Shown: one piece after another, positions 3,592 to 64,000 of the stretch
Position numbering within the stretch: the stretch's first letter is position 1
How the letters are laid out: each line of letters opens with the position of its first letter
Assembly: GCF_003265705.1 (NCBI RefSeq)
Contig: NW_020312903.1
Span: 22,756,194-22,820,193, forward strand
Direction of reading: 5' to 3'
Length of the DNA stretch: 64,000 nt
From: Callorhinus ursinus
Taxonomy: Eukaryota; Chordata; Mammalia; Carnivora; Otariidae
Notes under the pieces: generated by a model
The model's database searches: none
What the model saw: only the letters and a program-made list of their open reading frames with translations
What the model was told of the DNA's origin: nothing
Program-made: the position numbers and the translations under genes

Positions 3592-3738
3592 CTTCTGGAG
3601 GCGTGAATACTGAAATATTTGATTTGGGTCCAATGCCTGCACTGGTCTCAGCTGCAACATATACATCATACACCGTAAATGGTGTTAGGTTAGTGAATGC
3701 AAACTTCAGGTCTTTCGTGCTATTATCCAAAATCCGAC
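3592..3738 (-). CDS. PTPRQ: PTPRQ exon: FN3 domain, second part (last exon in window)
   Basis: 147 nt, phase 1 at both ends. It reads [20 protein letters not shown], then [17 protein letters not shown], and ends [23 protein letters not shown] is the FN3 E-F turn. The acceptor is TTTCTGCAG and the donor GAAG|GTTAGA. The next known exon (VPGAVFDLQ... in human) is not found between here and position 1, so it lies off the window. Confidence 0.93.
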
Positions 3739-18366: not shown

Positions 18367-18580
18367 TATTACATTTTTCAGGCAGTGGAATCACATTGAT
18401 GGCTCTAGAGAGAAATGTTGCCTGCATTAATGATTTAAAGACAGATCCTCCTGGCAAGTACACAATTAATGAGACTGGATTACTCAATAGCTCTGCCCTT
18501 TCTTTGTTAAACTATTCATGAACCCTTGGATGGCTGGCTGTAGGTTCGGGGTAAGACTTAAGAAAAAAAAAGGCATAGAC

Positions 18581-18777: not shown

Positions 18778-18938
18778 CTGATACTCTCCACCTCCAAGAT
18801 CTTTGATAGTAACAAAGCCACTGTCAGGAACAAGATCCACATGAAACCTTTCCACATGGCCAGAGGGCAGGCTCCAGTACAGAGAAAAGGAATGTGTGGA
18901 AATATTGAAGGCTTTAAGTCTCTCGGGTTTTTCTGGTT
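18778..18938 (-). CDS. PTPRQ: Exon 14 in window: FN3 domain 9, first half
   Basis: 161 nt, phase 1 in, phase 0 out. With the split codon it reads [20 protein letters not shown], then [17 protein letters not shown], and ends [10 protein letters not shown]. It is the A-to-D/E part of an FN3 domain that lacks its F and G strands. Those strands ([14 protein letters not shown]) are exactly what the next in-phase exon, 17851-17962, encodes. The donor is TATCAG|GTATAG and the acceptor TTTTCAATATCAG. This exon is the bridge between the extension and annotated PTPRQ. Confidence 0.85.
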
Positions 18939-24900: not shown

Positions 24901-27900
24901 ATCACCCAGCCCAAAATGTCAATAGTGCTGAGGTTTAGAAAATCTGCCACAGACAAAAATTTCTTGAGTGGGTCCAATTGTAATATGTTGGATTTTATAC
25001 TTTACTTAGTGTGACATTCTGAAGAAAAGACACTGAATACATGATTGAACATATGTGCTTTTTAAGAAATAATAAAGATGTGTAGTATTTATATATAAAC
25101 AATATTTAAAATGTACAAAGTAGGGGCACCTGGGTGATTCAGTCATTTAAGCATCTGCCTTTGGCTTGGGTCATGATCTCAGGGTCCTGGGATCGAGCCC
25201 CATGAAGGGCTCCCGGCTCAGTGGGGAGTGTGCCTCTCCCTCTCTCTCTCTCTGCCCCTCTCCATCACTCATGTGCTCTCTCTCTCAAATAAATAAACAA
25301 AATCTTTAAAAATTAAAAATTAAAAATTAAAATGTACACAGTGTAATAGAATGTTTAAGAGCCATAAGAAGTCTCAAAGATCATGTACTCCAAATTACAT
25401 TGAAACATAAAGCCAAAGATATTAGATAACAACCCATAATAATTAATAAGTATCAAATCCAGGAGTAAACTGGTGAATGAATCCTAAACACATTGCTTTT
25501 TTTGCATTGTCACATACATATCACATTTAGGAAAACAATAGTGTATTTAGTCTGTAGAATGACACTCCAAGGTGCCCACATGCGAACCCATGAAACATAT
25601 TAATATGTGATGTTATATGTGGCAAAAGGGGTTTTAGATGTAATTAAGATTATGGACTTTAAAACAGAGAAATCAACCTAGATTATCCAGGTAGGCCCGA
25701 TCTAAACACACAGCCCCTTAAAAGTGAAAGAGGAAGAATAGTCACATGTGACAGGAAAAAAGGTAGGAGAGAGTTTAAGCATGAGTGCAATTCAACCTTC
25801 TTTGTTGGCTTTGGAGATTGAAGAAGAGGATTACAAGCCAAGGAATGAGGCTTCCTCTAGAGCTGGGATCAATTCTCAGCTGACAGCTAGCAAGGAAATG
25901 GTTACCTCAGTCCTACAACTGCAAGGAACTGAATTTTGCAAACAATTTAAATGAGCAAAGAATTGGGTTTCCCCTGGAACCTCCAAAAAGAACACAATCC
26001 TCCAAATACCTTGATTTTAGACTGGTAAGATCTGTGTTGAACGTATAACCTACAGAATTAGGACATAATAAATTTTTTGTTGGTTCATGCCACTAAGCTT
26101 ATGGCAATTTGTCAAAACAGCAATTAGAGGCAAATACTGTATGTTAAGAGACACATAACAAATCCGTAGACTAGGTTACCATTACATGTCTGCTTTGGAT
26201 CATGTTGAAACCACAGTCTTAAAGATTACTTAAGAGAAATCTCATGAGATATTACAGTGATCATGTTCTTTTTTCAAAAATTTAAAATATTGATAGGTTT
26301 CACAGCTTCATCTGGATTTTAAAATGATGCTTTAAGTTATTCAGAATAAGATTTTGTTCTCTTCTCATATACAAACAACAAAGTCTTACAATATTGAAAT
26401 ACTTATAATTCCACAAATACACCATTATTCATTTATACCTCCATAATTTTGTTATTTCCTCTCTCTGTGAGTCCTCCTTTCCTCACACCCCACACCTCCT
26501 CTAGTCTAATTAGAAACTCCTTATCCTTTACAGTCATTACCAGGCTCAAAGAACCTTATCCAACCATGCCATGGACTAGTCATTTCCTTTTCTGTGCAAC
26601 CAGAATAAGTTTGAATTTACTTACATTACTTCACCTATTAATTTGACTTATACTATATGTGCTTCTATGCTTCCATTTTTTACTACTCTCTGCACATTCT
26701 AAGACTGCTTTTTCATGTGTATAGCAAATAGTAGGACATAAAAAGGCAATGAATAAGTTTTTAGGAGGATGGATGATCTCCATGTCATCCACCTAATTTC
26801 ACTAGCTGGACCTCTAATTTAATGTGACACTCAAGTATAATATTAGCTACATTTCATGAGCACTGACTAGAAACTATTTTATCTGATTTGCATTTTACAT
26901 ATATTATGTAAAGAATCCACAGAATATCCCAATAAAATGAATATTTTTACCCTCTTTTTATAAAGTTTAAATTTTCAAATTTCAAAAAAAATTCATTGAA
27001 ATTTCAACTTGAACAGTATGATATGCAACACAAATGTGAATTTTTAAAATATCAAAAAGAATTTGTATACCTGCAATAACTCTAATAAATGTGCCCGGTC
27101 CTTCAACATTGTCTCTCACTCTACATACTGTGATGTTATATATTCCACCAGGAGTCAGATCTGTAACTGTGTGCTCTGTAATAATTCCCCAAATAAGGTA
27201 TTCTTCTGTAAATGTTCTGTTTGATATATAAATCTTGTAATGAGTGAAGTTAGTCTCTGTTGGATTCCACATTAAATTTGCAGAAGTAGTATTCACAGCT
27301 TTTAATGTTAAGCCACATATCCTGGATGGTTCTATTGAAAAGGTAAATTTATACAAATTAAAATCGCACATAGATATGTAAAAACAAAGCAAACATGAAT
27401 AATATAATTTAACCATCTGTGTACTAATCCTTAAATTTATTCATGTATAACATCCTCTATGTTCAGCTCTGCAAACAGAGAAATAGGACATTATATATAT
27501 TTGAGTTTCAACTTAAGTAGCTCATTAACATCCTCCCTAGTTCCCAAATGTCTTTCCTTAATCAATCATAAGTCATTAGTCATTCCTGTACAAGACTTGC
27601 GCCTCCTGAGTGCTTGTAACAAGAAGTATCCTTATACCATATAATCCCAGGTTTGTTAGCTACTACTTAGCAGTTAGCTAGATGTTGAATAAAAATGAAA
27701 CAGAACAATGGGGCGCCTGGGTGGTTCAGTCAGTTAAAGCATCTGACCCTGGGTTTCAGCTCAGGTCATGGTCCTAGGGTCTTGAGATCAAGCTCTATGT
27801 TGGGCTCCGTGCTGCGCATGGAGCCTGCTTAAGATTCTCTCCCTCTCATGCTTGCTCTCTCTCTCTAAAAAAAAAAAAGAAAAAAGGAAAGAAAGCGAGG

Positions 27901-30900
27901 GAGGGAAGGAGGAAGGAAAAGAAAGAAAAGAGAGAAAGAAAGAAAAAAAACAGAATAAAGAAGTTAGAGAGTAAGTAAGGGCCAGAAGTAAGGGTACTTT
28001 CGAATGTGGTTCTGGTTACATCAAAGTTTTTAGCATTCCCATATTGCTGCATTTTTAATATATCTGTCAATGGAGGCAATGTTGTTTCTTGCACTACTAA
28101 TTGGTTTCCACTGAGAAGGGATCCTGTAGACCTCACAAACTTTCATAAGAATTATTGGTAAGATATTATTATTCCACCCCACCCAAAATATTATGAAACT
28201 GATATACAGTAAATTTACAAACATCAGGGAAGAGAAAAGTCTGTTTATCAAACCCCTTCCTCAGTAGAAAATGAATTGTGTTTATATTATTATGGCATCT
28301 ACATATAGTGTTTGTGTGTATATACAAACATATATATCCATGTGTGCACACATGTATATTCCATATATGTGACATACAATACACACTTATACATATATGT
28401 TGGCTTCAGATTATTAAGAAAAAACTCTAGGTACTTCCCAATACATTTAGTCATACAAAGATTTTTTTGTTGTTCATATAGTTTTTGAGAATTATCTTAA
28501 TCATATTTTTATGGTCATAATTATCCTTTATTATCAGGCTTTACATATTAAAATAGCTTTATTTATGCTAAGCAAAAATACTTTAAGTTCTTATAAGACT
28601 ATAAGGCAAAGAATTTATTTATGATATACCCTTACTTGTAGCCACTTTCTTCATTACAGATACACTGTAATCTCTGCCTCTAACTGTCTTCACGTCCAAC
28701 ATGTAGTCCACACCTGGAGTCAAATTCTTTACTTTGGCTTTGTTGCCATACACAATTACTTTAAATATCTTTTCCCTTCTAGATGTCATACAATAAGATA
28801 TCTAGAGAAGGAGAGAGAGAAATTTATGCTTTTAATTGTTTAAAAATAATTTACTTAGCACTAACTCTGTACCAAATTCACAGACATTAATACTGAAAGG
28901 AAGGCGTTGTAATTCTTCCTGTCTCCACCAAGGAGTAATTTGGGGCCAGCTGATATTGAATAACTTAGTGAAGTTCACATAGTTAATAAGCATAGTGGAC
29001 TGACCCAGAAGTTTATGCACTAAAACAGCAATAGTCTCAAATTGTTTTCAAATTTCATTTATATATATATACACACATACATACATATATACACATACAT
29101 GGATATATACATATATACAAATATATATAAATGAAATATTTAAAGTATATATTTGTGTACATATGTGTGTATATATGTATATTCTCTGACTTATATGTGG
29201 ATATGTGTATAATAGATGTACTGCATAATGAACTGGACTTTTCATGTTGGTCACCTGAAAACAAAAAAGTATTGTATAAAATTGCTGTGTAAAATTCCAC
29301 TCTCCCAACTCCATGTAAGTAGAAAATTGGAGGAGGAGAAAGCAGGAATCGTTCGAGTCCCAAGTTTCTGACCTAGTGAAGAATACCATGGCTTTTCCCT
29401 GGCTTCCCAAGGTATGGTAAACGGTAATTCTGCCCACACCCCACAAGGCAGGTAAATGAGAGACTGACATGTTATCACTCCTGTAAATTGAGGAGTGTGT
29501 GCCTCAGGAGAGAGCCAGTATTTGGAGGACTGTTAAACAGATTGGAACACATTCAGCGTTAGTTAGAGGAGTCAAACAAAAACAAAATAGCAAGAGAGAG
29601 AACAAGAAAAATAGATACCTGGAATAGAGAACGCATTCCAATTTTTATTAAATGGATGCATGATAAATGTCACACTCCATGCCAGCCCATCTTTCACTGT
29701 AACCTGAGCCAATCAATTATTCATTAAAGCTCTGAGAACTGGCATTGCTTTTAGAAATTTTCAGTGGAATACCCTGATAGTTCTAATACCTTAGAGATTT
29801 ATCGATTCATTAAAAGCTATAACAATCTTTACTCTTCTTCACTCTATATTTCATGTTTGTAAAACAGAAAGATATATACAAATGAAAATAATGACATGAT
29901 AATTCTATAAGTTATTTAAATGTTATTATGCTTTGAAAAACAATTTTTATGTGGTAGGAATCAGAGAAACAAATTTCCTAGGTAGGCATGTTTACCGCTG
30001 TCTTGTGGGAAGAGTGCTTTGTTACTGAGAAAGGACATCATGCGGTCTAGAAGCGTATCATTGTTTATCGATTTATAAGGTGTCACTGACAATTACCTTG
30101 CTTGTCTGGCAAATGGAAAGGCCAGAGGAGGAGTGAGGAGAATGCTGAGGATTTCCAGTACAAAAAAGGATGGTAGGAGGAAGTAGCTTGTAATAATAGA
30201 ATATAATCTTAATGGAGTACTAAATTTGAACATGTGAAGAGTTATATTAAGGCATTAATGAATGGGTAGAAAGAAAAGAAATAGTCTGTAGTGATCTCAT
30301 GTAAAAATATGTAAATTCTTAAAATCCAATTTGAAGGATAGAGGTTTGTTTGTTTCCCAAAGTATGTGGACTACACTTCTAATAAAAACCAATCAAAAAA
30401 ATGTAATTTTGGCTTTATTTCTACTTTTAAAGCATAGTTTGAAGACCTGGGATGATTAATTTTAAATGATTAGGAAAATGATCCCAATTATGCAATTACA
30501 TTGTGCTAAGCACACAGGATACTGTTCCTCAATTCATTAATATTTAACAAATAATCGCATTGGTTGAGAAAGACTAGGATAACCATTAGTAATACGATAT
30601 AGTTGAAAAAATAATCTGAATCCTAAATATTCACATGATTTCTTAGAATAAGTTTCACTTACTAGTAGATAACATAATTTACAGTCTCTGGTGGGGGAAG
30701 TGTTCATACAAAAATAGGAAAAATTAACTCTAGGGTTACCTGTTTTATCTGACAACAAATGATTTTATGGCCTCAGTTAACCCTAAAGACATTTGCCTTG
30801 AAATGAGAATTAGGGACAGACAAACAAGGGTAAAAAAAACAAGTGAACTTTTTACAATTAACACTAAAAATGTTTAGAATTTTCACTAGAGAACACCTAC

Positions 30901-48900: not shown

Positions 48901-49652
48901 TCCTTCAATTACAATATGTATGCCATCAAACACTCCAAGATCAGGCATTTGAACAGATAAAATTACAGAGGTACTATGACTTTCATATGGGATGACAATT
49001 TGGACTGGTTTGGGCTCTGAAAAACAAAAAGAGAGATTTATAATTAGTGGTTTTTTTTAAATTTCAAATACATTTCTCTCTATTTTGTCTGGCATATTCT
49101 AGAATATGCAAAAATACTAAATGCCTGTGCAAAGTTATGTTTACTATGTCATTATTAAACAGAAAAACAAGGTGGACATTCTGAGAGAGTGTATGTACAT
49201 ATATATTGGAAGTACCTGATTAACTTTTGATTTTGATTCTCAATAATAGTCTCCAAAACCTAAGAATCTGAGATTTTCTGATTTTTTTTACCTTTTTATC
49301 TATTTATTAAGCCAATGATTTTGAAAACCTAAATACTAGGAGGAATGCTTAAATAAAGTAAATAAGCCCAGATTCCTGCGTTTCAGAGTTCCCAATCTCA
49401 AGAAAGAGATACACAAATCACTTACTAGAATCCCAAATGGATAGAGCTGAGCTGATAACATGAACAAAAAGCTATTGAGAAGAGAGGAAGAAAACAAATC
49501 TAGCAGAGATCATTGGAGAAGGCTTCCAGAGTCTAAGATGTTTTATCTGAATCTTAAAGGGTAGTACAAGTTTACCAGAGAGAGCATGTGGTGGGCAGAG
49601 GTGGTAAGGAGGGAATTCCAGACAAAGAGAAAACCATGGAAACCAAAAAGGA

Positions 49653-49692
<40 letters not shown>

Positions 49693-51278: not shown

Positions 51279-51325
<47 letters not shown>

Positions 51326-54300: not shown

Positions 54301-57300
54301 GCTACAATAGCTTGTCTTTGTTTTGATCAATAATAATTACAAACATTCATATAGTGATTGTGTCAGGCACTGTTCTGAGTCCCTACCTTTATTAAATCAG
54401 CTATTTTCCAGAAAATCCATAAAATATATACCATTATTTTCTCACACTTTACAAATGGGTAAATTGAGGCATAAATAGTTTGAGTACATTGTCCAGGGCC
54501 ACTCAATTAGTTGGGCCCAGATTCAAACCTAGGTGGTATGGCTTTAGGGTCAAGTTTCTAATCATAAACAATACTGCCTTTATTCATGCATTAAGCATTC
54601 TCAGGAGAAGAGGAATGCAAACCGCTCCAGGTCCTGGGCTACCATTCGATAAGCACACCAACAATCTACCTAAAAAGGCAAAACCTACTACCAGAGGGGT
54701 GTGTCAGGGAATATTTCACAATATCCCCAAATCAGCAGATATCTGTTATGAATGAAAAATATTTGATTCTCACTTAGAGTTTGTTGAATAGTTACCAGCT
54801 CACTCAAGTTCCCATTTATCACTGTTGCCATTCCAATGTCATATGTCATCCCAGGGGTTAAATTATCAATCTTGAACCTATTAGCATCCCTTACAAAAAG
54901 CTTCATGACTTCTCTTGTATCTGATGAGGGTTTGATCTGAATGTAGACCTCATGGCCATCTGGTGGGGATTCCCACTGAAGAATTATACTGTCCTCTCCG
55001 ACATCTTCAGGTTTTGTGTGAACCTTCTGAGGAGGACTAATACCTTCAAGAAACGGATAAATAGGTAACACTTATCTTAGTTTATTGTTAGCATTACTCT
55101 TGCTCTGGAGTAAAAATGTCTTCATCCAATATTAGTTCATGTTTAAAGTAAATTTAGCAAATCCCTACAGCACCATGCCTTGAAATGGACTTAATTTTAG
55201 AGAAAAATATGTCTTGTTATTACTATGCAAGATTTGTCAATAAGATTAAGCACATTACACATCAAGGAAAACTAGAGTGTTTGGCAGATTCTTTAGATTT
55301 TTAAGAGTTCCATCAGAATACTGTTCCCATTGCCAAGATTATTCATTTTTTCATCAAAGGTGCATGGGAACCTACTATGTACCAGGTAGTCACCTAGGCA
55401 TGTAGAGTGCTTCAACAGGAAATAACAAAGGTCACTGCCTTCTGCAGTTTATATTGTAATAGGTGGAAATACACAATAAATGATCATATAATAAATGTGT
55501 ATATTATATATTACTTTAGATATGAGAAGGTTAAGGAAAAAAAGAAAAAGTAAGCTAAGGTTAGGGAGGCCAGGAACAAAGTGGCTGTAGGGAGGAAGTT
55601 GTGGTATTAAATAGGGAATTCACTTCCTATCAACATAATAGAACACCACATTTTAAGTTCTCAGGAAAATATCACTCTGGGTCAGACCCATAATCTGTTC
55701 ATCCTATACAACTTCACACAATTGTACCTGGTCTGACTTTAGGCACTGACATTAATTATGTATGTAAAACTATCAGAGAATGCTAGAATAATCCAATTAG
55801 ACAAACTGCCCACAAGATTCCAGGGTGAAACAACTTCAGATCTTTGTTTTTGTATAACTGCTAAACTTACAAACACTTCAGTGGAGGACTTAGATGAAAT
55901 CTACTGAATGCCACACATAAGCAGAAATTGAGGAAAAGATGAGATTTGGTAAGTCTGTGATAGCCCTATTATTACTCACAGAAATTTCTGTGCATGCATG
56001 TGTATTTTTATGGCAGAGGGTCCATTAATTTTTCCACATTCTCAAAAGACTTCATGACCCCCCCAAAAGTTAAATTTTACTGAATAAAATATACTCCTTA
56101 ATATATATGAAGGCTTTTCATGTTCTGTGCCTAGCTTACATTTTCTAGATTCTCTACATGCTCCCGTACTCCAGCCTTGCCAAATTACTTGCAATTTGCT
56201 AATGTTCAAATGTCAGTCCCTAGATACCTCTTCTTTGGTCCCCCCTGCCTGCGCACTTGCTGTTTGCCCTACTTACAGCATCCTCTTGCCTCCCCGCTGC
56301 CCCCTGGCTAACTCCTACTCTTCCTCATGAAGCAGTGCATGACTCCACCAGAAGACTTCTGGGTTAATTGATCCCTCTCTATGCTCCCATAGTCCCCAGA
56401 GCAGAACCCCTATAATTGCAACTATAATGCAGCATTATCACTGTTTTTTAACTTACTTGTCTCACTCTATTTGCACATAAGCCCTTTAAAGTCAGAGGCT
56501 ACGTTTTATTCATCTTTGCGTCTCTAGTATCTATTACGGCTCCTGATACTAGAAAAATAATTTATTGAGTGAATAATGAATGAAAAAAGGATATTGCCTT
56601 AACCTTAAGAGAGTAAAAGAGCACTGGATTACTAATTCCTACATGTGCACTGCTGTGTCAGCTTACAGTTAATATACAGAGCAAATGACCCAAAAATTAA
56701 AAGTGCAGACACACATGTACCTTCATCCTGTCCCTTTAGTAAGTAGGTACATGCCATGGAAGATTTTAATTTGACTTCAAAATGAACAAATCTGTGATAA
56801 ATCCTCCTAGTCTCCCTGTCAGTTAAAAATGGAAGCATCTTACAGAGAAAAGATCTATGGTTACCTGAGAGGATTTGTGTTGGAGAGTGGGCAAAAGGGG
56901 TGAAGGGGGTCAAGGGTAGCATGATGGATGGTAAATAGAATTTTGAGTGATCACTTTGTAGTGTATACAGATGTTGAATGATAATGTGCACATGAAACAT
57001 ATATAATTTAAAAAAAGAAAGCATCTTCATAAGTGTAAAATAGTCAACCAAAAATTTATACATTGAAGGGTGATTTGTCTGCGCTCGAGGAAGAGAAAAC
57101 ATGGCTATCTACCATCCATTTAGAAAAATGCTTTTGCTTAGGATTTACAACACTTAATACATGTATATTAAGCATTGGCATTTAGTTCTCATTAAATAGT
57201 ATCTTTTGTTCTTATTTTCAAAGTATCCCAAGTATTCCCAGTGAGTAAGAGAACGCTAATTAATCTATGGCTGTGCACATTTTTCATTTCTCCTACCTCA

Positions 57301-60300
57301 GCTCTAGAGTGTTTAAATTTCAGTTGGTATGATTTGATTGGGATTTCAGTCAAAGAACTTTGCATGTAGGCATGTTAAATACAATGCACCAACAATACAC
57401 ATATTATACACAGAGGAATATACTCCAAAACATGTTTAGCTATGCATTGTTTCATACAATACTCTTTTATCTTTTCAAAAAACATTGACTTATACTTAAG
57501 GGGGTAAATATATAGCTTAATTAAAATATAGATTACTTTAATGATTATGTTCTAGACAAGAATTCAAAATTGGCATGTGGAGGTGAATGATTAGAAATGC
57601 AATTGCCCAAAGTCCTGGGATGATACTGTCCCCTAGAGGTCAACTCATCACACTGTGTAAGAAAATGAATTTGAGTAAAACTTGAGTGAATATGCAGACC
57701 AATTTGTTGGATCTAGTGTTGTTAAAAAGAACTGGATGAACTAATCTTCATGTTTCATGATAAGTTATTTCCCAGCCAAGGCTATTATAAGAAAGATGTC
57801 TTCTAGGAACTCTGGTAGGAACAACGCAGATGTTTAAAGAGTTCATGCAAATCTAAACGAATTTAGTATAGAATCTATGCTAAATTTTGATTCAACACTC
57901 AAACAAATGTTTAGCTGTTGAGTATTCATACCAATGACGGGTCAACATAATTAATTTTCAGCAAATAAATTTCAAAATATGAAGTTTACATTTTTTATTA
58001 AAAAGCAAAATTGTGCCTGTGCTTACCTGTAATGGCTGAAATAGGTCTCTCAAAGCAGCTTAAAGTTCCTCTTTCTGCTACACTGAATAGATATACCAGA
58101 TAATGACGGAAAGATTTCAGATCTCCGATTTTCACTGATGTGTTGAGTTTTTCAACAAGCACCTCTTGTGATTTATTGTTTTCCACATCCAAAATAGTCA
58201 CAAGGTAATGGTGAAAAGATATAAGATCTGGAGGATTCCAGAGTAAAAATATTTCTGTTGGTGTCACATGAGTAACTGTGACATTTTGAGCTGATAATGG
58301 GCCTAGGAGATTTTAAAAAATCAGAAAAATACATTATATTAGTGATATGGTCTGGCAGAGTACTCTCTCACCTCTCAGTACTTCCATAATAGTCTAGTTT
58401 GGAGAGAAAAGGAAAACTGGATTTGAGTCCTGGCTTTTCCACTGTTTGTCTCTACTCCCTGAGTAAATTATTTACGCTCCCTGAGCCTCCATTGTTTTGA
58501 CCGTAAAGTGGGAATTATAGTAGTAGCTATCTTGGAGAATTATTAAGAAGATTAAATGAGATAAGGAATGGAGAACATTCAGCAAAATGTTTGACCCACG
58601 TTATTGGTTCAATCATTATTTTTATAACAAAACCACCAACAATGGCACTTCTGGCATTCCGTGATTACATCTTCCATGGCTTTTACCTTTTGTGTCTTGT
58701 CAGACTAGAGAGCAGGGACTTCCTATTCCTTATTCTTCATTCCTGTCATCACTAGACCTCGGGCATTCATCCTCTTGCAGAAATCTTTCCCCATTCCAAA
58801 CCATTTCATTCCAATCCCAGTCAGTGGTTTTCCTAATTCATCCTTCCAGATTAATTTTCTTTAAAAAGCACTTTGCACATATCAGTCCTTATCCTTCCAA
58901 CACGCACACACACACACGCACACACACACAGTACACACATTCCTCTTCTTTCTTTAGAAGCAATAGCTCAAGAGTTAAAATGAGATCATATGGGTTCCTG
59001 TGTGGCTTAACAAAGCGTGTTGCTCTAGTCAGTTTAATTAACCTTTCTGAAGCTCAGTTTTTTCATTTCTATATAGCTACTCCCAGGGTTGAGGTACGAC
59101 CTTTGTGAGATTATGTATTAAAAGCGTTTTGTAAAAGATAAAGCGAGTCTTAGAAACTGCAGTCTTAATGGATTTCCAATGCTTCTAAGGTCAAGTCCAA
59201 CCATCTGAGACTCACGTCCCTGGCACTCACAAATCTGGTACCACTTCACCACTCCAACTGATTTTACCGTCATGCCTGAGGAAATTTTTTCCAGTTAACC
59301 TACACTATTCTTTTTCCACAAGCTCCTGTCTCCACACTTTTGCTCACAACATGCTTTTCTTCCTTCAAATTTGAATCTAAACCTCTCCTTTCCATGAATC
59401 TTCCCATCACCCATCTTCTGAATTCTAGAAAGCATTTATTAAATGTACCACTGAATGAGAATTTAGACTCTTATATTTTCCTACACTTTGCTATCTCTTG
59501 TTTGCTTTTACTTTTACTCCTTACTAATTCTCTTCATTGTAAGCCTCCCCAAATTCACAATGCATGTCTATCTCCTGTTCTTAGCACATAACAAAACTTA
59601 AGTTCCACAAAAATGTATTGATTATCCACTGTGGGCAACAGTCTAGTTGGTGTTGTAAAGACAAATAAGATATAGTTCCTGCCCTCATGGGTTTATATTT
59701 TAACAGGAAAGCCAAAGACATAAACAGATTCATCATAAAAAATGGTTAAAGATCTAGGTATGCCAAGAGTGTTATGAGAAAATACCAGACCCTCAGGAAA
59801 AATCTGCTAATTATGATATTCAATAATTGAAAAATCACACTTTCAGAGGTTTTGTAACTTACGTGTTTCAACAAAGAATACTGAACTTAACATAGTTTTT
59901 GCCTCCCATTCGTTTATTGCAAAGAGTAAGAATCTGTAAATATGGCCAGGAAACAATTGGGTAATTGTTTTTTCTGTAGTATTTGGGGATATGCTTTCAA
60001 AATACTGTTCTTCTGTATAATCTAAATAATACTTAATGATAATTTTGTATCCCAGTTTTAGCCACTTATTCAAATTATTCCAAGCATTCAAATTATGCCA
60101 ACCAAATACAACTTCAGTTGTTCCAACATCCTTTATATAGATCAAAAGGTTTTCCTGCAGAGAAAGTGCTGAAAAAAATATAGAGGAGGATTATTGTAAT
60201 TAGAAATCATAATTCTATCTTTAAAATAATAAAAGTGAGATACATGGTATAAGAATATTAATAAAAATAATTACATTCATATTTGCAAATATATGGCAAT

Positions 60301-63300
60301 GGAACAGAGCAGAAAAATCTTGAAAAGAAATAGTTTGATCCAGTTGCATTTTGCTGTAAAATGTAGCAATCTGTTTCATTCTTGGGTAGCAGTGGAAAAG
60401 AAAAGATTTCATTTTTCTTAAGGCCAAAAGATGATCCATCTGTCCATGTGAGATGACCTTCTCTCTGAAATAAGATGTAAAAATTAAGCCAATTTGAAGG
60501 AGAAGTGTCACATCCTCAAATATATGTATGCTTCATGAGTTATTCTGAGATACAGAGTTCACTTTTATTCCCCCATTAGCCATATGTCTTCAAGAAAATT
60601 GCTGAATCTCACATTAAGCTTTTATTTTCTCATGCATAAAATGGATATAATAATAGAACCTACATCCTAAATTAATTAAAGAGGCAGTGCATGTAAAGGC
60701 TCAACACAATGCCAAGTACAGACCCACTATTCATTACAGATTAGTTATTTCAAGTCACCAAATAAGTCATATGCATGTGCATCAGGGGAGGTTGTTGATA
60801 CCTTCCTACTAAGGGATGTCACTGGTGAATATCACCAACCTCAATATAATAAGATATACTTAAACAATCCATTCCAATTCCACCTAACAGAATGGAGGAA
60901 TACTGTTTCCTCGAAAAATCTGCTTGATTGTATATAAGGCACTGCAGCTTTGAAAACAGATAGAGGCTCGAGGCAGCACGCGTAAGTGGTTAGGGCAAAA
61001 AGCACTGGTCAGACAGACACAGATTCAAAGCCTGGCAGGGCCATCTGTTAGCAGTGTGACCAGGAATTTTCTGAGCTCCATTTTCCTTATCTATAAATGA
61101 GAAAAATGATAGTGCCTCCCTATAAAGTTGTTGTGAGATCTAAATGAGAGTTATCTATATAAACTTTCCAGACTGGAACACAGAACTATTAATCTTTCAT
61201 TCACTATGTTCCTGCTGAGTGCCAGGCCCTAGCTAGAAGCTGGGGATGCAATGATGAATAAGACACAGTCTCTATCCTCAAAGTCCAGTAACAAACTCAC
61301 ACTTACTCAGCATGAGTGAATGGGGTGATTGTTTTCTCAACCTGTCACAGGGATTATAACCCAGGAGGTGACTTTGATGTTAACCTCAAGAGACCAGCTT
61401 CACATAGAAGTTATAGAATATAATGGTTAAGAGCAGACTCTGAGGCGTGTCATATGGGAAGGTTAACTTCCCTGTGCTCCTATTTCCTCATATGTCACAC
61501 AAGTAAAGCACATAGCATGGTGCTTAGCCCTTAGGAGACACTATAGGACTCAGCTACTAAAGGAAGTTTCTCTTAATAGTTATTTTGACATTTAATTTAC
61601 CTCCTAAATTATTTTTAAGTATCGTAAAAGCAGAGACTGTATCTTAGACCCCTTTGAATAATTCACAGCAACCATCATGACGCCTTGGGAATCCTCACTC
61701 TGGGTGTCATGACCGTATGACCTGACCCTTATAGCAGAAACCAGTAACCAGACCTACTAGAAGACAGTTTATAACAATCACGCTAACAGCAGGAAACAAC
61801 CGCCTACACACCACCTGGTCTACCTGAAAAGAGACTGGCATGCTGGGGGGCACGCTTGTGAGATGTCTGAGGTCAATGTGGTTCGAGGAACCTTTATTAG
61901 AACCTCATTCCCTGCCCGTGAAAAGCTAAAGGAAGCTCAAAAAGAGAATGATGAAAATGCAGTTAGAGACTGTCGGGAAGGGGCGCCTGGGTGGCTCAGT
62001 CAGTTAAGTGTCCGACTCCCGGTTCCAACTCAGGTAGTGATCTCAGGGTTGTGAGATCGTGAGATCGAGCCTCGAGCTGGGCTTCGCACTCAGTGCAGAG
62101 TCTGCTTAAGACTCTCTTCCTCTGCCCCTCCCCCGCCCATCTCTCTCAAATAAATAAAAAAAAAAAAACTTAAAAAAAAGGAGAAAAGAACTGTCAATAG
62201 CCTACCCCAAGCTGATACAAAGTTCCACAGAAAAAATGGTATCCAACTGATTGGCCTCGGGTCACTACAGGTCAGGCTATCCCATAGATAACAGATTTAT
62301 TTTTGAGTGGCAGGAAATTTTTAAGAAACGGATCATCAAGAAGAAAATACAGACTAGGCAGAGATAACTGTGCTAGGTCTTGGGTTTTCCTACAAAAAGC
62401 TGACCAAAATGAAATTTCATGAGATTATTTCATAAGTGATAGGAATGCTGGAGAAAATGTCACACATTCCTTATTTCACTGGTATTGAATATAAAATCTT
62501 CAGATCTTTCTATAACTCTTTTAGTAAAATTAACTTTCATAAACCTGGATATTTGAAATAAAAGAAATAAAATGAACAAAATTTCTATATTCCATATTTT
62601 CAGGTTCATGTTACTATGTTGTTCACAGAGGTGAGAAATAGAGGAAGTGGAGCAGGTTGGTAGGAAGGAGAGGACAGTCTGGGCAATGCTGAAGTGTCTA
62701 TGGAAAATTCCAAAAGAGATAATCAGAAGAAAATTGGATAGGGGCACCTGGATGGCTCAGTCGGTTAAGTGTCTGCCTTCAGCTCAGGTCATAATTCCAA
62801 GGTCCTGGGATCAAGCCCCTGCATCGGGCTCCCACTCAGCGAGGAGCCTGCTTCTCTCTCTCCCTCTGCCTGCCACTCCCCCTGCTTGTGTGCTCTGTGC
62901 TCTCTCTCTCTCTGTCAAATAAATAAAAAAAAAATCCTAAAAGAAAAGAAGAAAATTAGATGTCTGGAGCTCATAAGAGAAAAGTGGGCTAGCTAAATAC
63001 TTAAGAACAATTGGGCTGGGTGGTAAATAAGTGAAGAAATGGATGAGATCGCCTACCTTTAAGACAGGTCTGAGGAAGACCAAAATTAAAGCAAAATTAC
63101 GGAAAGAAATAGATGCCTACAAAGAGATTGAAGGGCGTGGGAAGAGGTGAATAGGCAGAGAACAGAGGATTTTTAGGGTGATGAAAATATGCTGCATGAT
63201 ACCATAATAATGAATGTATATCGTTATACATTTGTCCAAACCCACAGAATGTACAGCACCAAGAATGAACCATAATGTAAACCATGAACTTTGGGTGATT

Positions 63301-63961
63301 ATGATGTTGCCAATGTAGGTTTCTCAGTTGTAACAACTGTACCACTCTGGTGGGGAATACTGATAAGGGGGGAAGCTATTTATGTGTGGAGACAGGGGAT
63401 ATGTGGGAAATCTCTGGTACCTTCCCCTCAATTTTGTTATGAACCTAAACTGCTCTAAAGAGAGGTGGTGGGGCGGCAGGGAGGGAGGGAAAGATTGAGA
63501 TAGAGAAACAGTGTCTGGGGACATCCGGGTGGCTCAGTCAGTTAGGCATCTGCCTTTGGCTCAGGTCACAATCCCAGGGTCCTGGGAGGGAGCCCCTCAT
63601 CGGGCTCCTTGCTCAGCCTGGAGCCTGCTTCTCCCTCTGCCTGCTTTGCCTGCTCTCCCTGCTTATGCTCTCTCTTTCTCGCTCTCTCTCTCACAAATAA
63701 ATTTAAAAAATATAAAAAAAAAGAAACAGTGTCTGGCTTTTAGGAAGTATTCAATAAATATTTAGTGCATGATGGAGGAAGGAAGGAAGAGGGGGCAGGG
63801 AGGAAAAAGGGAAGGAAAGGGAAAGGAAGAAGAGGGAGGGGGAGGAGCGGGAAGAGAGGAAGGGAGGGAGGAAGGAAACGAAAATAGTTTTGTCATGATA
63901 TACGCATTTACTAACCTTCATATCATTAAGACCAGTCCATATTATCATTTGATCATTTGAC
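18778..63961 (-). CDS. PTPRQ: Upstream N-terminal extension of PTPRQ: CTLD half plus 8.5 FN3 domains in 14 exons
   Basis: Fourteen minus-strand exons, seen directly, with AG acceptors, GT donors and matching phases: 63916-63961, 60275-60464, 59863-60168, 58027-58302, 54774-55043, 48756-49016, 46989-47119, 46680-46809, 44881-45031, 44323-44429, 40749-40846, 28636-28801, 27071-27331 and 18778-18938. They sum to 2554 nt, which is one base finishing an off-window codon plus 851 open codons. The domains in order are the C-terminal half of a C-type-lectin-like domain, FN3 1-4 (one exon each), FN3 5-7 (two exons each), FN3 8 (one exon), and the N-terminal half of FN3 9. The final exon ends in phase 0 and fits the phase-0 start of the PTPRQ exon at 17851-17962, completing FN3 9. 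Inference: a long PTPRQ isoform. Alternative: a neighbouring gene of the PTPRB/PTPRQ family. No start codon or signal peptide for this form lies in the window. Confidence 0.8.
19217..19988 (-). mobile_element. 5'-truncated carnivore L1, reverse, containing the assembly gap
   Basis: Its low end is the L1 3' terminus in reverse (ATTGTTATGTTAATCACCAT), followed by the C/T-rich 3' UTR and then the end of ORF2 (GGACATTGCTGCTATAAACA in reverse). Flanks share CCAAATTGTTTTTT, so both ends are present. Confidence 0.85.
19799..19898. other. Assembly gap (100 N)
   Basis: Exactly 100 N, the usual placeholder length, inside the L1. The missing length is unknown, but L1 sequence continues on both sides. 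Confidence 0.98.
20910..21113 (+). mobile_element. Can-SINE
   Basis: Head GTGTGCCTGGGTGGCTCAG and tail TCGAATAAATAAATAAAATC. The perfect duplication TAGAATACTGTAAACCCA is on both sides. Confidence 0.92.
21600..22100 (-). repeat. L2 LINE remnant, reverse (probable)
   Basis: TGGTAGTTTGGACAGAGAGG and GCAGATTCCTGGATATGAGC resemble the L2 region in reverse. Old. Confidence 0.45.
22495..22775 (+). mobile_element. Non-autonomous hAT-like DNA transposon
   Basis: Inverted-end blocks CAGCAGTGTCCAAA and TACTGGACAGTATAG enclose GTGAGCCACATTAAAAAGGT and TTAACCCAATATATCAAAAA, an arrangement I know from an abundant mammalian MITE. The subfamily name is uncertain. Confidence 0.5.
23335..23560 (-). repeat. 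MIR, reverse
   Basis: AAATGAGAAAACTGAGAAAC, then AGGCAACTTCACCAAGGTCT and AGAGCCAGGATTTAGACCTA, in the order of a reversed MIR. Confidence 0.75.
23880..24110 (+). repeat. MIR
   Basis: GGGTTTAAATCCTGGCTTTG, then CCTTAACCCCTCTGTACCTC and ACACATAAAGTGCTTAGAAG, in MIR order. Confidence 0.8.
25123..25328 (+). mobile_element. Can-SINE
   Basis: Head GGGGCACCTGGGTGATTCAG, CT-rich middle, AAT-rich tail. Duplication AAAATGTACA(A/C)AGT. Confidence 0.9.
25565..26140 (+). repeat. Ancient LTR-retrotransposon-like remnant (MaLR type, uncertain)
   Basis: Contains blocks familiar from old mammalian LTR-type repeats: TGTGGCAAAAGGGGTTTTAG, GATTATCCAGGTAGGCCCGA, CAAGCCAAGGAATGAGGCTT and CACTAAGCTTATGGCAATTT. 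The family name is not certain. The 68-codon frame in it is not a gene. Confidence 0.45.
27071..27331 (-). CDS. PTPRQ: Exon 13 in window: FN3 domain 8 of extension (single exon)
   Basis: 261 nt, phase 1 to phase 1, a whole FN3 domain. It reads [20 protein letters not shown], core [17 protein letters not shown] and F-strand [15 protein letters not shown], ending FIRVIA. Sequons: NTT, NFT, NRT and NIT. Two cysteines (RIC in strand A, TVC in strand F) could pair inside the domain; that is inference. Borders are TTTTCAATAG| and GCAG|GTATAC. The open frame runs through both splice sites, but the phase chain sets the limits. Confidence 0.85.
27332..28635 (-). other. PTPRQ extension intron, 1.3 kb
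   Basis: One Can-SINE with a long purine tail (listed) and a TA/CA-rich stretch at about 28310-28400. Otherwise unrecognised. Confidence 0.6.
27710..27950 (+). mobile_element. Can-SINE with long GA-rich tail
   Basis: Head GGGGCGCCTGGGTGGTTCAG. The tail grew into a GGAAAGAAAG-type purine tract (27870-27950). Flanks share AAACAGAA(C/T)AA. Confidence 0.9.
28636..28801 (-). CDS. PTPRQ: Exon 12 in window: FN3 domain 7, second half
   Basis: 166 nt, phase 0 in, phase 1 out. It reads [20 protein letters not shown], then [20 protein letters not shown], and ends [19 protein letters not shown] is the FN3 E-F turn. The acceptor is CCTTCTCTAG; the donor is ACAA|GTAAGG. The intron before it is almost 12 kb and full of L1 and L2 sequence. 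Together with exon 11 it forms one domain. Confidence 0.8.
29059..29190. repeat. TA/CA-rich simple repeat
   Basis: Interrupted (TA)n, (CA)n and (CATA)n. It produces tyrosine/isoleucine-rich open frames on the minus strand that I reject as genes. Confidence 0.85.
31190..31940 (-). repeat. L2 LINE remnant, reverse
   Basis: CACACATTTATTGAGATTCT, then GACCATGGCAAGGAGTTTAG and GTTATATGGAAAGTAGATTG, follow the reversed L2 3' region in order. Confidence 0.65.
32235..32560 (-). repeat. L2 3' end followed by MIR, both reverse
   Basis: AAATATTTATTGTCTCCTAT to about 32345 is L2-like. From there, AGATGAGGAAATAGGGCCAA and GGTGAAGATGGGATTCAAAG are a reversed MIR. Confidence 0.6.
32605..32950 (+). mobile_element. 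L1 ORF2 fragment, forward
   Basis: A 74-codon frame here reads [20 protein letters not shown], a known L1 ORF2 stretch. It joins directly to L1 sequence of opposite polarity at about 32951. Confidence 0.8.
33511..33735 (-). mobile_element. Can-SINE, reverse, nested in L1
   Basis: T-rich tail, AAGATTTAGTTATTTATTTG, a long GA-rich stretch and TGAGCCACCCAGATACCCC. Duplication ATTACAGCCTTTT. Confidence 0.9.
33971..34096 (-). mobile_element. Can-SINE, reverse, internally shortened, nested in L1
   Basis: (ATTT)n tail, then CATGACCCTGAGGTCAAGAG and CTGAGCCAGAAGGGCACCCC. The CT-rich middle is missing. Flanks share CACA(A/G)TAATTATT. Confidence 0.85.
35265..35395. repeat. Imperfect tandem duplication (~70 bp unit) in L1
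   Basis: CAGCTACTATATTCTTCAGC and GGTACTCTCTTCTATGTT each occur twice, separated by an 18-T run. This looks like a local duplication inside the old L1. Confidence 0.85.
38200..38665 (+). repeat. Probable LTR-like or L1 3'-end sequence
   Basis: The end (CATCTGAAACTAATATAATG, then TTGTGTGTCAACTATACTC and an A-rich tail) is a common L1-type 3' terminus. The part before it (AATCACAGTAAAAACCAAAA and onward) may be an LTR. Weakly supported. Confidence 0.35.
40749..40846 (-). CDS. PTPRQ: Exon 11 in window: FN3 domain 7, first half
   Basis: 98 nt, phase 1 in, phase 0 out. With the split codon it reads [20 protein letters not shown], then [13 protein letters not shown]. The PDPPSDL linker and the [12 protein letters not shown] strand-B/C block are clear FN3 signatures. 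The donor is TCAG|GTAAAG. The acceptor (TTTCATTGCGCATAG) has a poor pyrimidine tract, and a plus-oriented L1 starts only about 25-35 bp further upstream, so the branch-point region may lie at or inside the L1 edge. Confidence 0.8.
40870..41888 (+). mobile_element. 5'-truncated L1, forward, next to an exon acceptor
   Basis: ORF2 3' part (AGAAATGGGCAGAAGACATG, GAGATACCACTTCACATTGG) through ATGACGTGGATGGAACTAGA to a poly-A tail. A (TA)n run sits at 41416-41452. Frames are broken. Confidence 0.9.
43689..43893 (+). mobile_element. Can-SINE
   Basis: Head CGGGGCACCTGGATGGCTCA and tail GCCGAATAAATAAATAAAAT. Flanks share AAAAAG...GTGCC. Confidence 0.9.
44323..44429 (-). CDS. PTPRQ: Exon 10 in window: FN3 domain 6, second half
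   Basis: 107 nt, phase 2 in, phase 1 out. It reads [20 protein letters not shown] and ends [22 protein letters not shown] is the strand E-F turn. The acceptor lies after a long T run (TTTTTTTTTTAATGTGTAG); the donor is ACTT|GTAAGT. The other two frames meet stops or break the phase chain, so the frame is fixed. Confidence 0.8.
44430..44880 (-). other. PTPRQ extension intron, 451 bp
   Basis: AT-rich, no repeat recognised. This phase-2 intron splits FN3 domain 6. Confidence 0.6.
44881..45031 (-). CDS. PTPRQ: Exon 9 in window: FN3 domain 6, first half
   Basis: 151 nt, phase 1 in, phase 2 out. It reads [20 protein letters not shown] with the core [15 protein letters not shown] and ends EEILPSTKR (the Arg codon is split). 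The strand-B Trp and the 'xGYII' strand C are typical of FN3. The phase-2 intron inside the domain differs from the phase-0 splits of the other two-exon repeats. Borders are TGATATAG| and AAAAAG|GTATGA. Confidence 0.82.
45032..46679 (-). other. PTPRQ extension intron, 1.6 kb
   Basis: Holds an LTR remnant (listed) and otherwise unrecognised AT-rich DNA. Confidence 0.6.
45330..45915 (+). repeat. Solo-LTR-like remnant (ERV type, uncertain)
   Basis: Ends with TTTATTTCTCTCCTGTTGAT, GTCTCAGTCAAGGACCTAGA and AGGGCAGAGAGAAAATTATT, a familiar carnivore LTR ending. No internal coding part is seen. It carries the 17-bp duplication TTTTGAGCTGGTTATTT around an (ATTT)n insert (45390-45435). Confidence 0.45.
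46680..46809 (-). CDS. PTPRQ: Exon 8 in window: FN3 domain 5, second half
   Basis: 130 nt, phase 0 in, phase 1 out. It reads [20 protein letters not shown], then [14 protein letters not shown], and ends EIQT. The [14 protein letters not shown] stretch is the FN3 strand E-F-G region. The acceptor is GATTGATAG (weak pyrimidine tract) and the donor ACAG|GTACAG. With the preceding exon it forms one FN3 domain split by a phase-0 intron, as in the known PTPRQ exon pairs downstream. Confidence 0.8.
46989..47119 (-). CDS. PTPRQ: Exon 7 in window: FN3 domain 5, first half
   Basis: 131 nt, phase 1 in, phase 0 out. It reads [20 protein letters not shown], then [15 protein letters not shown] and MNCTAAFM at the end. 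The layout (APxN linker, strand-B Trp, acidic loop, HYE-I strand C) closely resembles PTPRB/PTPRQ-type FN3 repeats. Two cysteines (ITCMNC) are odd for FN3. The donor is CATG|GTATGT. It is followed by a 179-bp intron and the second half of the domain. Confidence 0.82.
47120..48755 (-). other. PTPRQ extension intron, 1.6 kb
   Basis: Very AT-rich. I recognise no repeat and no further exon. Confidence 0.6.
48756..49016 (-). CDS. PTPRQ: Exon 6 in window: FN3 domain 4 of extension (single exon)
   Basis: 261 nt, phase 1 to phase 1. It starts [17 protein letters not shown] and passes [13 protein letters not shown] to the F-strand turn [16 protein letters not shown], ending YVPAVKT. The classic strand-B Trp is not seen ([10 protein letters not shown] occupies that site), so this domain is divergent. 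Borders are a strong TTTTTCAG acceptor and CAT|GTAAGT. The last base T plus the next exon's GT would make a Cys codon in the linker, which is unusual for this array. Confidence 0.8.
49480..50120 (-). repeat. L2 remnant, reverse, interrupted by an ATC repeat and a forward MIR
   Basis: GGAGAAGGCTTCCAGAGTCT and GGCTTTGCATGCCATGCTAA are reversed L2 blocks on both sides of a forward MIR (about 49770-49935, CTGTGCCTTGGTTTCCTAAT). Confidence 0.55.
49654..49692 (+). repeat. (ATC)13 microsatellite
   Basis: Thirteen uninterrupted ATC units. Confidence 0.97.
51278..51328 (+). repeat. (AAAT)n microsatellite
   Basis: About twelve uninterrupted AAAT units. Confidence 0.97.
51740..51970 (-). repeat. MIR, reverse
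   Basis: CATAGTGCTTGCTTGGTGTC, then CATTTTAGAGAGAAGGAAGC and CTGTGCTCCTAAGCACTGCC, follow reversed MIR order. Confidence 0.65.
53243..53320 (-). mobile_element. Short L1 3'-end fragment, reverse
   Basis: TACATCATTAGTTTTTGATG is shared with the L1 at 19260. Only about 75 bp is present. Confidence 0.7.
53540..54215 (+). repeat. L2 LINE 3' region, forward
   Basis: CACACCATCCCTCTCCTGCA, then AACCCTCAATGGATTCCCAC and TCATCCATTAGGACCTTCAA, follow the L2 3' order. Confidence 0.7.
54320..54570 (-). repeat. MIR, reverse
   Basis: GTCAGGCACTGTTCTGAGTC, then TTACAAATGGGTAAATTGAG and GGGCCCAGATTCAAACCTAG. It ends about 200 bp from the donor of the 54774-55043 exon. Confidence 0.75.
54774..55043 (-). 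CDS. PTPRQ: Exon 5 in window: FN3 domain 3 of extension (single exon)
   Basis: 270 nt, phase 1 to phase 1. The product starts [16 protein letters not shown], with core [16 protein letters not shown] and F-strand [15 protein letters not shown], and ends VTIQQTL. The LTPGMTYDI pattern is a textbook FN3 E-F turn. The acceptor is TTTATCCGTTTCTTGAAG|, chosen over a later TTAG because only it gives the phase used at every other inter-domain border. The donor is CTAA|GTGAGA. Confidence 0.83.
56110..56585 (+). repeat. L2 LINE 3' region, forward
   Basis: ACTTGCTGTTTGCCCTACTT, TGGCTAACTCCTACTCTTCC and GAGGCTACGTTTTATTCATC follow L2 3' order. Confidence 0.65.
56830..57015 (+). mobile_element. L1 3' UTR fragment, forward
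   Basis: GGGCAAAAGGGGTGAAGGGG, GATCACTTTGTAGTGTATAC and ATGATAATGTGCACATGAAA belong to a common L1 3' end. It lies antisense to the 156-codon frame at 56632-57102, which is therefore not a gene. Confidence 0.65.
58027..58302 (-). CDS. PTPRQ: Exon 4 in window: FN3 domain 2 of extension (single exon)
   Basis: 276 nt, phase 1 to phase 1, a full FN3 domain. Joined to the previous exon it begins [17 protein letters not shown]. The core is [10 protein letters not shown]; the F-strand region is [17 protein letters not shown], and it ends in FERPISAIT. The expected PGTxY turn is replaced by [10 protein letters not shown], a variant found in other PTPRB-type repeats. Sequons: NVT, NKS and NTS. Borders are CTCCTAG| and ACAG|GTAAGC. 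There is no stop or frameshift. Confidence 0.82.
58303..59862 (-). other. PTPRQ extension intron, 1.6 kb
   Basis: Almost filled by old repeats: MIR forward (about 58420-58620 and 58990-59130), L2 forward (about 59150-59600) and L2 reverse (about 59615-59720). A CA-rich repeat is at 58902-58941. Confidence 0.6.
59863..60168 (-). CDS. PTPRQ: Exon 3 in window: FN3 domain 1 of extension (single exon)
   Basis: 306 nt, phase 1 at both ends, encoding one complete fibronectin type III domain. It runs from [16 protein letters not shown] through the strand-B/C core [11 protein letters not shown] to [16 protein letters not shown] and VFFVET. The Trp in strand B and the PGxxY(R)F pattern in strand F are FN3 marks. 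The acceptor is a strong T8-CAG; the donor is ACAC|GTAAGT. A second AG 14 nt inside the exon would shift the frame, so the first AG is preferred. The domain is somewhat longer than usual, about 102 residues. Confidence 0.8.
60275..60464 (-). CDS. PTPRQ: Exon 2 in window: C-terminal half of C-type-lectin-like domain
   Basis: 190 nt, phase 0 in, phase 1 out. The product starts [17 protein letters not shown] and ends [14 protein letters not shown]. Family marks visible are the WTDGS loop, a Cys in NETDCYIL, a second Cys in RFFCSV and the terminal YIC, which together match the last three conserved CTLD cysteines. The calcium-site motifs (EPN or QPD, and WND) are not visible, so calcium-dependent sugar binding is unlikely; a protein-binding CTLD is the better guess. 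One N-glycosylation sequon (NET) and one NAT are present. The acceptor is TTATTTCAG and the donor GAAT|GTAATT. It is followed by a very short 106-bp intron, then an FN3 exon in matching phase. Confidence 0.8.
61980..62180 (+). mobile_element. Can-SINE
   Basis: Head GGGGCGCCTGGGTGGCTCAG, a duplicated GTGAGATCGTGAGATCGAGC in the middle, and a poly-A end. Confidence 0.92.
62741..62946 (+). mobile_element. Can-SINE
   Basis: Head GGGGCACCTGGATGGCTCAG. The duplication AGAAGAAAATT(G/A)GAT is on both sides. Confidence 0.92.
63518..63721 (+). mobile_element. Can-SINE
   Basis: Head GGGGACATCCGGGTGGCTCA. The perfect duplication AGAAACAGTGTCTGG is on both sides, so this is a fairly young insertion close to the CTLD exon. 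Confidence 0.92.
63769..63880 (+). repeat. Polypurine (GGAA/GGGA) tract
   Basis: About 110 bp of nearly pure A/G on the plus strand, 36 bp inside the intron from the donor of exon 63916-63961. On the transcript it is a long polypyrimidine run. Confidence 0.9.
63916..63961 (-). CDS. PTPRQ: Exon 1 in window: CTLD core strand (WTGLND motif)
   Basis: A short 46-nt exon: one base, then fifteen codons reading [15 protein letters not shown]. The acceptor follows a good pyrimidine run (TTATATTTTCACTTCTCAG); the donor is AAG|GTTAGT. The W-x-G-L-x-D pattern is the hallmark of the C-type lectin fold (the usual 'WIGLND' strand). The next exon continues in frame with an acidic, Trp-rich loop, as in CTLDs. 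The first half of the domain, with its first cysteines, must lie upstream of 64000. A polypurine tract (63769-63880 on the plus strand) lies just inside the following intron. The small size makes this exon less certain on its own than as part of the pair. Confidence 0.7.
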
Positions 63962-64000
63962 CTGAGAAGTGAAAATATAAACTTTTTTTCCTCTTCATTT

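What the first reader, a model, noticed from the sequence alone, without database searches (positions are those of the whole stretch)
18778..63961. PTPRQ appears to have a long, intact N-terminal extension: CTLD plus nine FN3 domains
Fourteen exons upstream of the known signal-peptide exon splice, on paper, into 851 open codons with AG/GT borders and full phase agreement. They end in phase 0, exactly matching the PTPRQ exon at 17851. Neutral DNA of this AT content would not keep fourteen stop-free exons with correct borders and FN3 motifs (PGxxY, strand-B Trp). The human PTPRQ protein I know starts at the signal-peptide exon, so this form seems unannotated or under-described. It would change the size of the ectodomain of a stereocilia protein and the exon list screened in deafness patients. 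I cannot rule out that it is annotated in some genomes.
Basis: partly seen in the sequence, partly recalled or inferred. Interest (0 to 1): 0.9.

Follow-up and report, generated by a model that had tools for sequence, protein, structure and literature searches.

The report
Long N-terminal form of PTPRQ
The upstream exons are real and complete a much longer version of the hearing protein PTPRQ, but gene databases already list that version for dogs, whales, birds, frogs and sharks, so the find is correct rather than new.

Summary
On the minus strand, 14 exons (63999-18778) splice in one open frame (2592 nt, 864 codons; exon a is cut by the window edge) into PTPRQ exon 17962-17851. They encode part of a C-type-lectin-like domain (CTLD) and nine fibronectin type III (FN3) domains, the ninth completed by that exon. 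Dog PTPRQ isoform X2 (3180 aa) matches all 14 in order; shuffled and reversed windows give no match.

"N-terminal extension of PTPRQ" is supported; "unannotated" is not. Predicted long PTPRQ records exist from carnivores and whales to frogs and sharks. Later papers give human PTPRQ 58 exons, citing Schraders 2010.

One correction: the usual signal-peptide exon ([18 protein letters not shown], 18363-18310) lies inside the intron between exons 18778 and 17962. It looks like an alternative first exon that starts PTPRQ halfway through an FN3 domain. It was seen only in placental mammals (27 of 241 fetched records). No fetched primate or rodent record has the full long form, so the deafness-screening claim does not follow for the distal exons. 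Expression was not testable.

The parts
63916..63999 (-). exon a, middle of the CTLD; cut by the window edge at 64000
   Evidence: 75% to dog residues 234-261
60275..60464 (-). exon b, C-terminal part of the CTLD
   Evidence: (Lectin_C 1e-06 for a+b)
59863..60168 (-). exon c, FN3 #1 (weak alone: 18.6 bits, curated cut-off 25)
58027..58302 (-). exon d, FN3 #2
54774..55043 (-). exon e, FN3 #3
   Evidence: not scanned alone
48756..49016 (-). exon f, FN3 #4; phase 1 at both ends; missing from the pig, mink, mole and Tasmanian devil models
   Evidence: not scanned alone
46989..47119 (-). exon g, first half of FN3 #5
46680..46809 (-). exon h, second half of FN3 #5
44881..45031 (-). exon i, first half of FN3 #6 (internal phase-2 intron)
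44323..44429 (-). exon j, second half of FN3 #6
   Evidence: found by phase-constrained search
40749..40846 (-). exon k, first half of FN3 #7
28636..28801 (-). exon l, second half of FN3 #7
27071..27331 (-). exon m, FN3 #8
18778..18938 (-). exon n, first half of FN3 #9, ends in phase 0
18310..18363 (-). signal-peptide coding part of the alternative first exon of short PTPRQ ([18 protein letters not shown]), donor CAG|GTATTT
   Evidence: 18 of 18 residues identical to the recalled human sequence
18310..18404 (-). possible internal 95-nt exon: acceptor-like CTCTCTAG 5' of the signal peptide; reading on from exon n gives SHQCDSTA-stop, the join used in the mole model P0002
17851..17962 (-). exon o, second half of FN3 #9, shared by long and short PTPRQ
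3596..17184 (-). known PTPRQ exons after o (about 17184-16957, 14578-14510, 9003-8797, 7645-7397, 5774-5640, 3742-3596)
   Evidence: tblastn with recalled human PTPRQ; ends read by eye

Best explanation
The 14 exons are the 5' half of the PTPRQ gene of a mammal, probably a carnivoran. PTPRQ has two start routes. The distal route begins outside the window (in dog: signal peptide MEKSIILLLW.., two FN3-like units, CTLD) and runs through exons a-n; n joins o in phase 0, completing FN3 #9 and giving a receptor of about 3180-3380 residues in mammals. The proximal route starts at an alternative first exon inside intron n-o (ATG at 18363), whose signal peptide joins o directly and gives the well-known receptor of about 2300 residues, which begins halfway through FN3 #9. 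Shown here: the exons, frame, splice borders, order and conservation of the long form, and the position of the signal-peptide exon. Inferred: that the long mRNA is made in this species; that the long form is ancestral and the short start a placental addition; that the extra domains lengthen the stereocilia surface coat, with the CTLD as a distal tip that binds without the usual sugar/calcium residues.
For: Open frame with agreeing phases. fn3 x9 and Lectin_C. Order and identity against PTPRQ of dog, whale, cattle, bird, frog, fish and shark; dog 779/864 identical in the extension and 365/376 in the known part. Long records joining n to o (187 of 241). The short start covers only fn3 profile positions 46-79 of 84 (19.2 bits, below the cut-off of 25), whereas n+o covers 2-82 (41.8 bits). 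A signal-peptide-exon N-terminus is in 27 of 241 records, all placental by record name, while sharks, amphibians, reptiles, birds and a marsupial have long records. Five of the 21 split models end by reading into an intron: jaguarundi and mink after j, two yak and pangolin after k.
Against: Everything here is gene models and sequence; no transcript was seen. Several databases split the region off as a separate gene: tenascin-R-like in jaguarundi, uncharacterized LOC in mink, chimp and slow loris. The mole model ends at the signal-peptide exon's acceptor. Records vary in exons f and m. FN3 #1 alone is below Pfam's cut-off. The extension is less conserved than the known part. The placental limit of the signal-peptide exon rests on a text pattern run on records chosen by score (best 120 of 264 and of 278 listed).
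Confidence: 0.9

Rival explanations
1. Exons a-n (with the upstream exons) are a separate gene, a secreted tenascin-like CTLD-FN3 protein next to PTPRQ.
For: Gene models named tenascin-R-like, tenascin-N, fibronectin-like or uncharacterized LOC in jaguarundi, mink, mole, chimp, bats, birds, a monitor lizard and a frog; the mole model ends with a stop at the signal-peptide exon's acceptor.
Against: Exon n holds only the first half of an FN3 domain and its phase fits exon o. 187 of 241 fetched records join n to o, sharks included. The monitor-lizard tenascin-N model itself runs into exon o and beyond. Five of the 21 split models end by reading into the intron after j or k, not at a shared terminal exon.
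Confidence: 0.05
2. The signal-peptide exon also works as an internal switch: when spliced in after exon n it stops the long frame and releases a soluble CTLD-FN3 protein, and the short receptor is read from its own start.
For: An acceptor-like CTCTCTAG ends 41 nt before the ATG, giving a 95-nt exon that reads SHQCDSTA-stop after exon n; the mole model uses this join.
Against: Seen in 1 of 241 protein records; one acceptor-like site is weak evidence; no transcript.
Confidence: 0.12
3. The upstream exons are decaying in this species and no longer translated.
For: The extension is less conserved than the known part (0.902 against 0.971 to dog); primate and rodent records are broken or short; in the neutral simulation some runs stay stop-free at low divergence (70 of 500 at d=0.02, 7 of 500 at d=0.05).
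Against: No stop, frameshift or lost splice border in 14 exons; the frame also stays alignable to cattle (715/864), turtle (513/856) and shark (319/766) proteins.
Confidence: 0.03

Closest known systems
Predicted long PTPRQ isoforms in RefSeq/UniProt (e.g. dog isoform X2, 3180 aa, P0024)
   Same: Same exons in the same order, same n|o join, CTLD and FN3 domains, phosphatase domain; 92% over the scored region of extension plus first PTPRQ exons, 90% over the extension alone
   Different: No structural difference seen; these are predictions, and no description turned up in the paper searches listed under Tried and rejected
Human/mouse/rat PTPRQ of about 2300 aa
   Same: Exon o onward; the signal-peptide exon is present in the window too (recalled human sequence; rat record P0142)
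   Different: Starts halfway through FN3 #9, without CTLD or the upstream FN3 domains
5'-extended human PTPRQ isoforms (Schraders et al. 2010)
   Same: Extra, alternatively spliced 5' exons with a varying number of FN3 domains (abstract recalled, paper not held; 58 exons cited in PMC11349657, PMC9310072, PMC5932988)
   Different: Numbering suggests about 218 extra residues (roughly exons k-n), not the CTLD part (inference)
Other R3 receptor phosphatases (PTPRB, PTPRJ, PTPRH, PTPRO)
   Same: FN3 chains on a single-phosphatase receptor
   Different: Described as having FN3 domains only in the passages read of PMC10815196; the word lectin does not occur in PMC5336234
Tenascin-R/N (names given by some gene models)
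   Same: FN3 arrays
   Different: The hits carry a CTLD, and no fibrinogen or EGF domain is among their listed accessions (accessions judged from recall)

Membership tests
PTPRQ (R3 receptor phosphatase) | Exons contiguous and in frame with the known PTPRQ exons | tested here: met
   phases; downstream exons
PTPRQ (R3 receptor phosphatase) | Orthologous proteins join the upstream part to PTPRQ and its phosphatase domain | tested here: met
   Y_phosphatase in dog P0024 and turtle P0161
PTPRQ (R3 receptor phosphatase) | FN3 domains with phase-1 borders and, in some, an internal intron in phase 0, 1 or 2 (PMC5336234, passages) | tested here: met
   phase-1 borders; internal introns in phase 0 (FN3 #5, #7, #9) and phase 2 (FN3 #6)
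PTPRQ (R3 receptor phosphatase) | Transcript joining exon n and exon o | not testable with these tools
   no RNA data available
C-type lectin-like domain | Sequence match to Lectin_C | tested here: met
   (a+b alone 29.9 bits, within the whole protein 23.6, cut-off 22.6); full domain in dog 45.4 bits
C-type lectin (sugar/calcium binding) | EPN or QPD and WND motifs (recalled) | tested here: not met
   neither motif in 15 aligned rows (14 vertebrate sequences and the window part; camel and devil dropped out of 16 by the start pattern)
Tenascin | EGF repeats and fibrinogen-like domain (recalled) | tested here: not met
   no such Pfam family in the window protein, which is not full length, nor among the accessions of the tenascin-named hits

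The most novel reading that the evidence does not exclude
The CTLD-bearing long receptor is the original vertebrate PTPRQ. Placental mammals gained a first exon inside intron n-o that starts the protein mid-domain, and the primate and rodent lines then lost the distal half. Mouse and human work has thus described a derived short receptor, while dogs, whales, bats, birds and fishes keep a hair-bundle coat protein roughly ten domains longer with a lectin-like tip.
Probability: 0.5. Interest if true: 0.55.

Novelty: already known. Interest (0 to 1): 0.3.

Why it matters
PTPRQ is needed for the shaft connectors of stereocilia and is a deafness gene (PMC11956499, PMC9900141, passages). If most vertebrates carry a receptor with about a thousand more ectodomain residues (1098 before exon o in dog against 18 in the short form), link lengths, knock-out designs and antibody results from mouse may not carry over to other animals. 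For human genetics the practical point is narrower: only the proximal upstream exons (roughly k-n) look usable in the primate records seen, and extra 5' exons were already reported for human.

Tried and rejected
Considered and rejected: chance open frames (nulls of 0); a separate tenascin-like gene (n|o joins; intron read-through ends). In passing, 10 other long frames had no Pfam match and the window had no Rfam match at gathering score.

A disabling change shared by primates was considered, because the chimp P0019, lemur P0011 and loris P0006 models all leave exon f within one codon of the same place. It stays open: exon f is also skipped in the pig, mink, mole and devil models, and no primate DNA was available.

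dN/dS could not be computed (no DNA from other species). The window's own genome could not be searched: the same request did not complete six times. Structure prediction was never accepted because the queue was full. Schraders 2010 and Eisenberger 2018 are not held.

Literature searched for an extended or lectin-bearing PTPRQ. No paper describing the CTLD form showed in those listings, most of which I saw only as titles and abstract starts (one search listed 40 of 340 papers). Passages were read of PMC5336234, PMC10815196, PMC9900141, PMC4065360, PMC6815010, PMC10018040, PMC11349657, PMC9310072, PMC4412678, PMC5932988 and PMC11050587; of PMC11956499 the outline with abstract.

Full report
What is there. 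The minus strand of the window carries the 5' half of PTPRQ. A hand-assembled model with 14 upstream exons has AG and GT borders at every junction inside the window and agreeing phases, 2592 nt without a stop, and enters exon o (17962-17851) in phase 0. Exon j was found only by a phase-constrained search: 24 stop-free candidates, three of which passed the FN3-like and splice filters, one with a strong donor and an FN3-like end. Exon a runs to the window edge; in dog PTPRQ 233 residues precede it.

Domains. The spliced protein has 9 fn3 stretches (7e-70 in all) and a Lectin_C match. Of the nine FN3 domains, seven were also scanned alone: six pass Pfam's cut-off and FN3 #1 does not (18.6 against 25 bits). 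Of the two FN3-like units before the CTLD in dog, one gives a weak fn3 match (22.1 bits in the joint scan, 17.2 alone, both below cut-off) and the other none, so "two FN3-like units" there is my reading by eye. The CTLD resembles mannose-receptor CTLDs (7.7e-10) but lacks the EPN/QPD and WND motifs of sugar-binding C-type lectins in 15 aligned rows from dog to shark (motifs recalled). It may therefore bind protein or nothing; that is inference.

The signal-peptide exon. The coding part of the signal-peptide exon is at 18363-18310, inside the intron between n and o, and encodes [18 protein letters not shown], identical to the recalled human start. Joining it to o leaves only the second half of an FN3 domain (profile 46-79 of 84, 19.2 bits), whereas n+o gives a whole one (2-82 of 84, 41.8 bits). 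That half domain is the simplest sign that the usual start is the derived one.

Not chance. Dog residues 234-1098 hit 14 of 14 exons at E<=1e-3 with no hit elsewhere on either strand; a pigeon and a shark sequence hit 13 of 14; a reversed window and 10 block-shuffled windows gave none. Identity to dog is 779/864 in the extension and 365/376 in the known part; to cattle 715/864 and 359/377; to pigeon 468/855 and 300/377; to shark 319/766 and 179/371. The extension evolves faster than the known part but stays alignable throughout. In the neutral simulation the share of stop-free runs was 70, 7, 1, 0 and 0 of 500 at d = 0.02, 0.05, 0.08, 0.10 and 0.15; a mean amino-acid identity of 0.89 belongs to d=0.05. 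As neutral divergence from dog was not measured, the simulation cannot by itself exclude recent loss of function.

Already annotated. A first protein search (length limit 0.55-1.75 of the query) returned 23 proteins, of which 21 are relatives of this region, mostly split gene models called tenascin-R-like, fibronectin-like or uncharacterized. Five of those 21 end by reading into an intron, after j in jaguarundi and mink and after k in two yak records and pangolin. Two searches with long queries returned 264 and 278 proteins, the best 120 of each listed. These contain long PTPRQ records from dog, wolf, whales, ruminants, camel, bats, Tasmanian devil, turtles, birds, lizards, snakes, frogs, salamanders, a caecilian and sharks. 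Of 241 fetched records (isoforms counted apart, not species), 187 join n to o, and 120 also have the CTLD and at least 9 of the 11 exons c-m. Of these 120, 116 are 2844-3672 residues long; the other four (1031, 1936, 2284 and 2716) are partial or shorter models. By their names none of the 120 is a primate, rodent or rabbit.

Primates and rodents. The two chimp models, lemur and loris stop within or skip around exons e-h; capuchin has part of k plus l-n; macaque has l and n; squirrel monkey, naked mole-rat and squirrel have n only; Damaraland mole-rat has g, h and n. In chimp X2, lemur and loris exon f is left within one codon of the same place. This fits loss of the distal half in that branch but could also be poor gene models.

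Human literature. PMC11349657, PMC9310072 and PMC5932988 (passages) say PTPRQ has 58 exons, citing Schraders et al. 2010; PMC4412678 and PMC11050587 (passages) and PMC11956499 (outline and abstract) say 45. PMC6815010 (passages) says that Eisenberger et al. sequenced alternatively spliced exons and predicted coding regions. I recall, and could not open, the Schraders abstract saying that the human gene was not completely annotated and has additional alternatively spliced 5' exons giving varying numbers of FN3 domains. Residue numbers point the same way. Five residues quoted for Q9UMZ3 in PMC10815196 fit the recalled 2299-residue sequence at one of the 80 offsets tried (42 residues added in front). 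The Arg/Tyr pair implied by the Schraders changes (Table 2 in PMC9310072) fits at two of 300 offsets, 43 and 218; only 218 lands on the arginine that PMC10815196 quotes for the same study. A 218-residue extension would be about exons k-n. The legend of the neighbouring Table 1 in PMC9310072 names NM_001145026.2, which the recalled sequence does not fit at offset 0. This stays an inference.

Mechanism. Most likely the gene has a distal start outside the window for the long receptor and a proximal placental first exon for the short one. An acceptor-like site before the signal peptide, used in the mole model (SHQCDST then the end), leaves open a switch in which that exon also ends the long frame. 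No transcript evidence was available for any of this.

Verdict. It is a predicted, widely annotated long form rather than an unknown one. What remains worth doing is to test its expression and the idea that mouse and human PTPRQ are derived short versions.

Noticed in passing
window 18404-18310: The signal-peptide exon has an acceptor-like CTCTCTAG 41 nt before its ATG; the mole model P0002 splices exon n to it and stops.
   Followed up: partly
exon f, window 49016-48756: FN3 #4 is missing from the pig, mink, mole and Tasmanian devil models and is left within one codon of the same place in chimp, lemur and loris models.
   Followed up: partly
exon m, window 27331-27071: FN3 #8 is absent from the Myotis and macaque records and has no matching domain between l and n in two sharks, so its presence varies.
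   Followed up: no
window 19799-19898: A run of 100 N, an assembly gap or masked stretch, in repeat-like DNA between exons m and n.
   Followed up: no
window 27750-27890, 25120-25320, 20900-21100: Stretches that look like carnivore tRNA-derived SINEs (by eye, family recalled); they fit a carnivoran source.
   Followed up: no
window 49653-49692: A perfect CAT/ATG triplet array (13.3 copies) in an intron.
   Followed up: no
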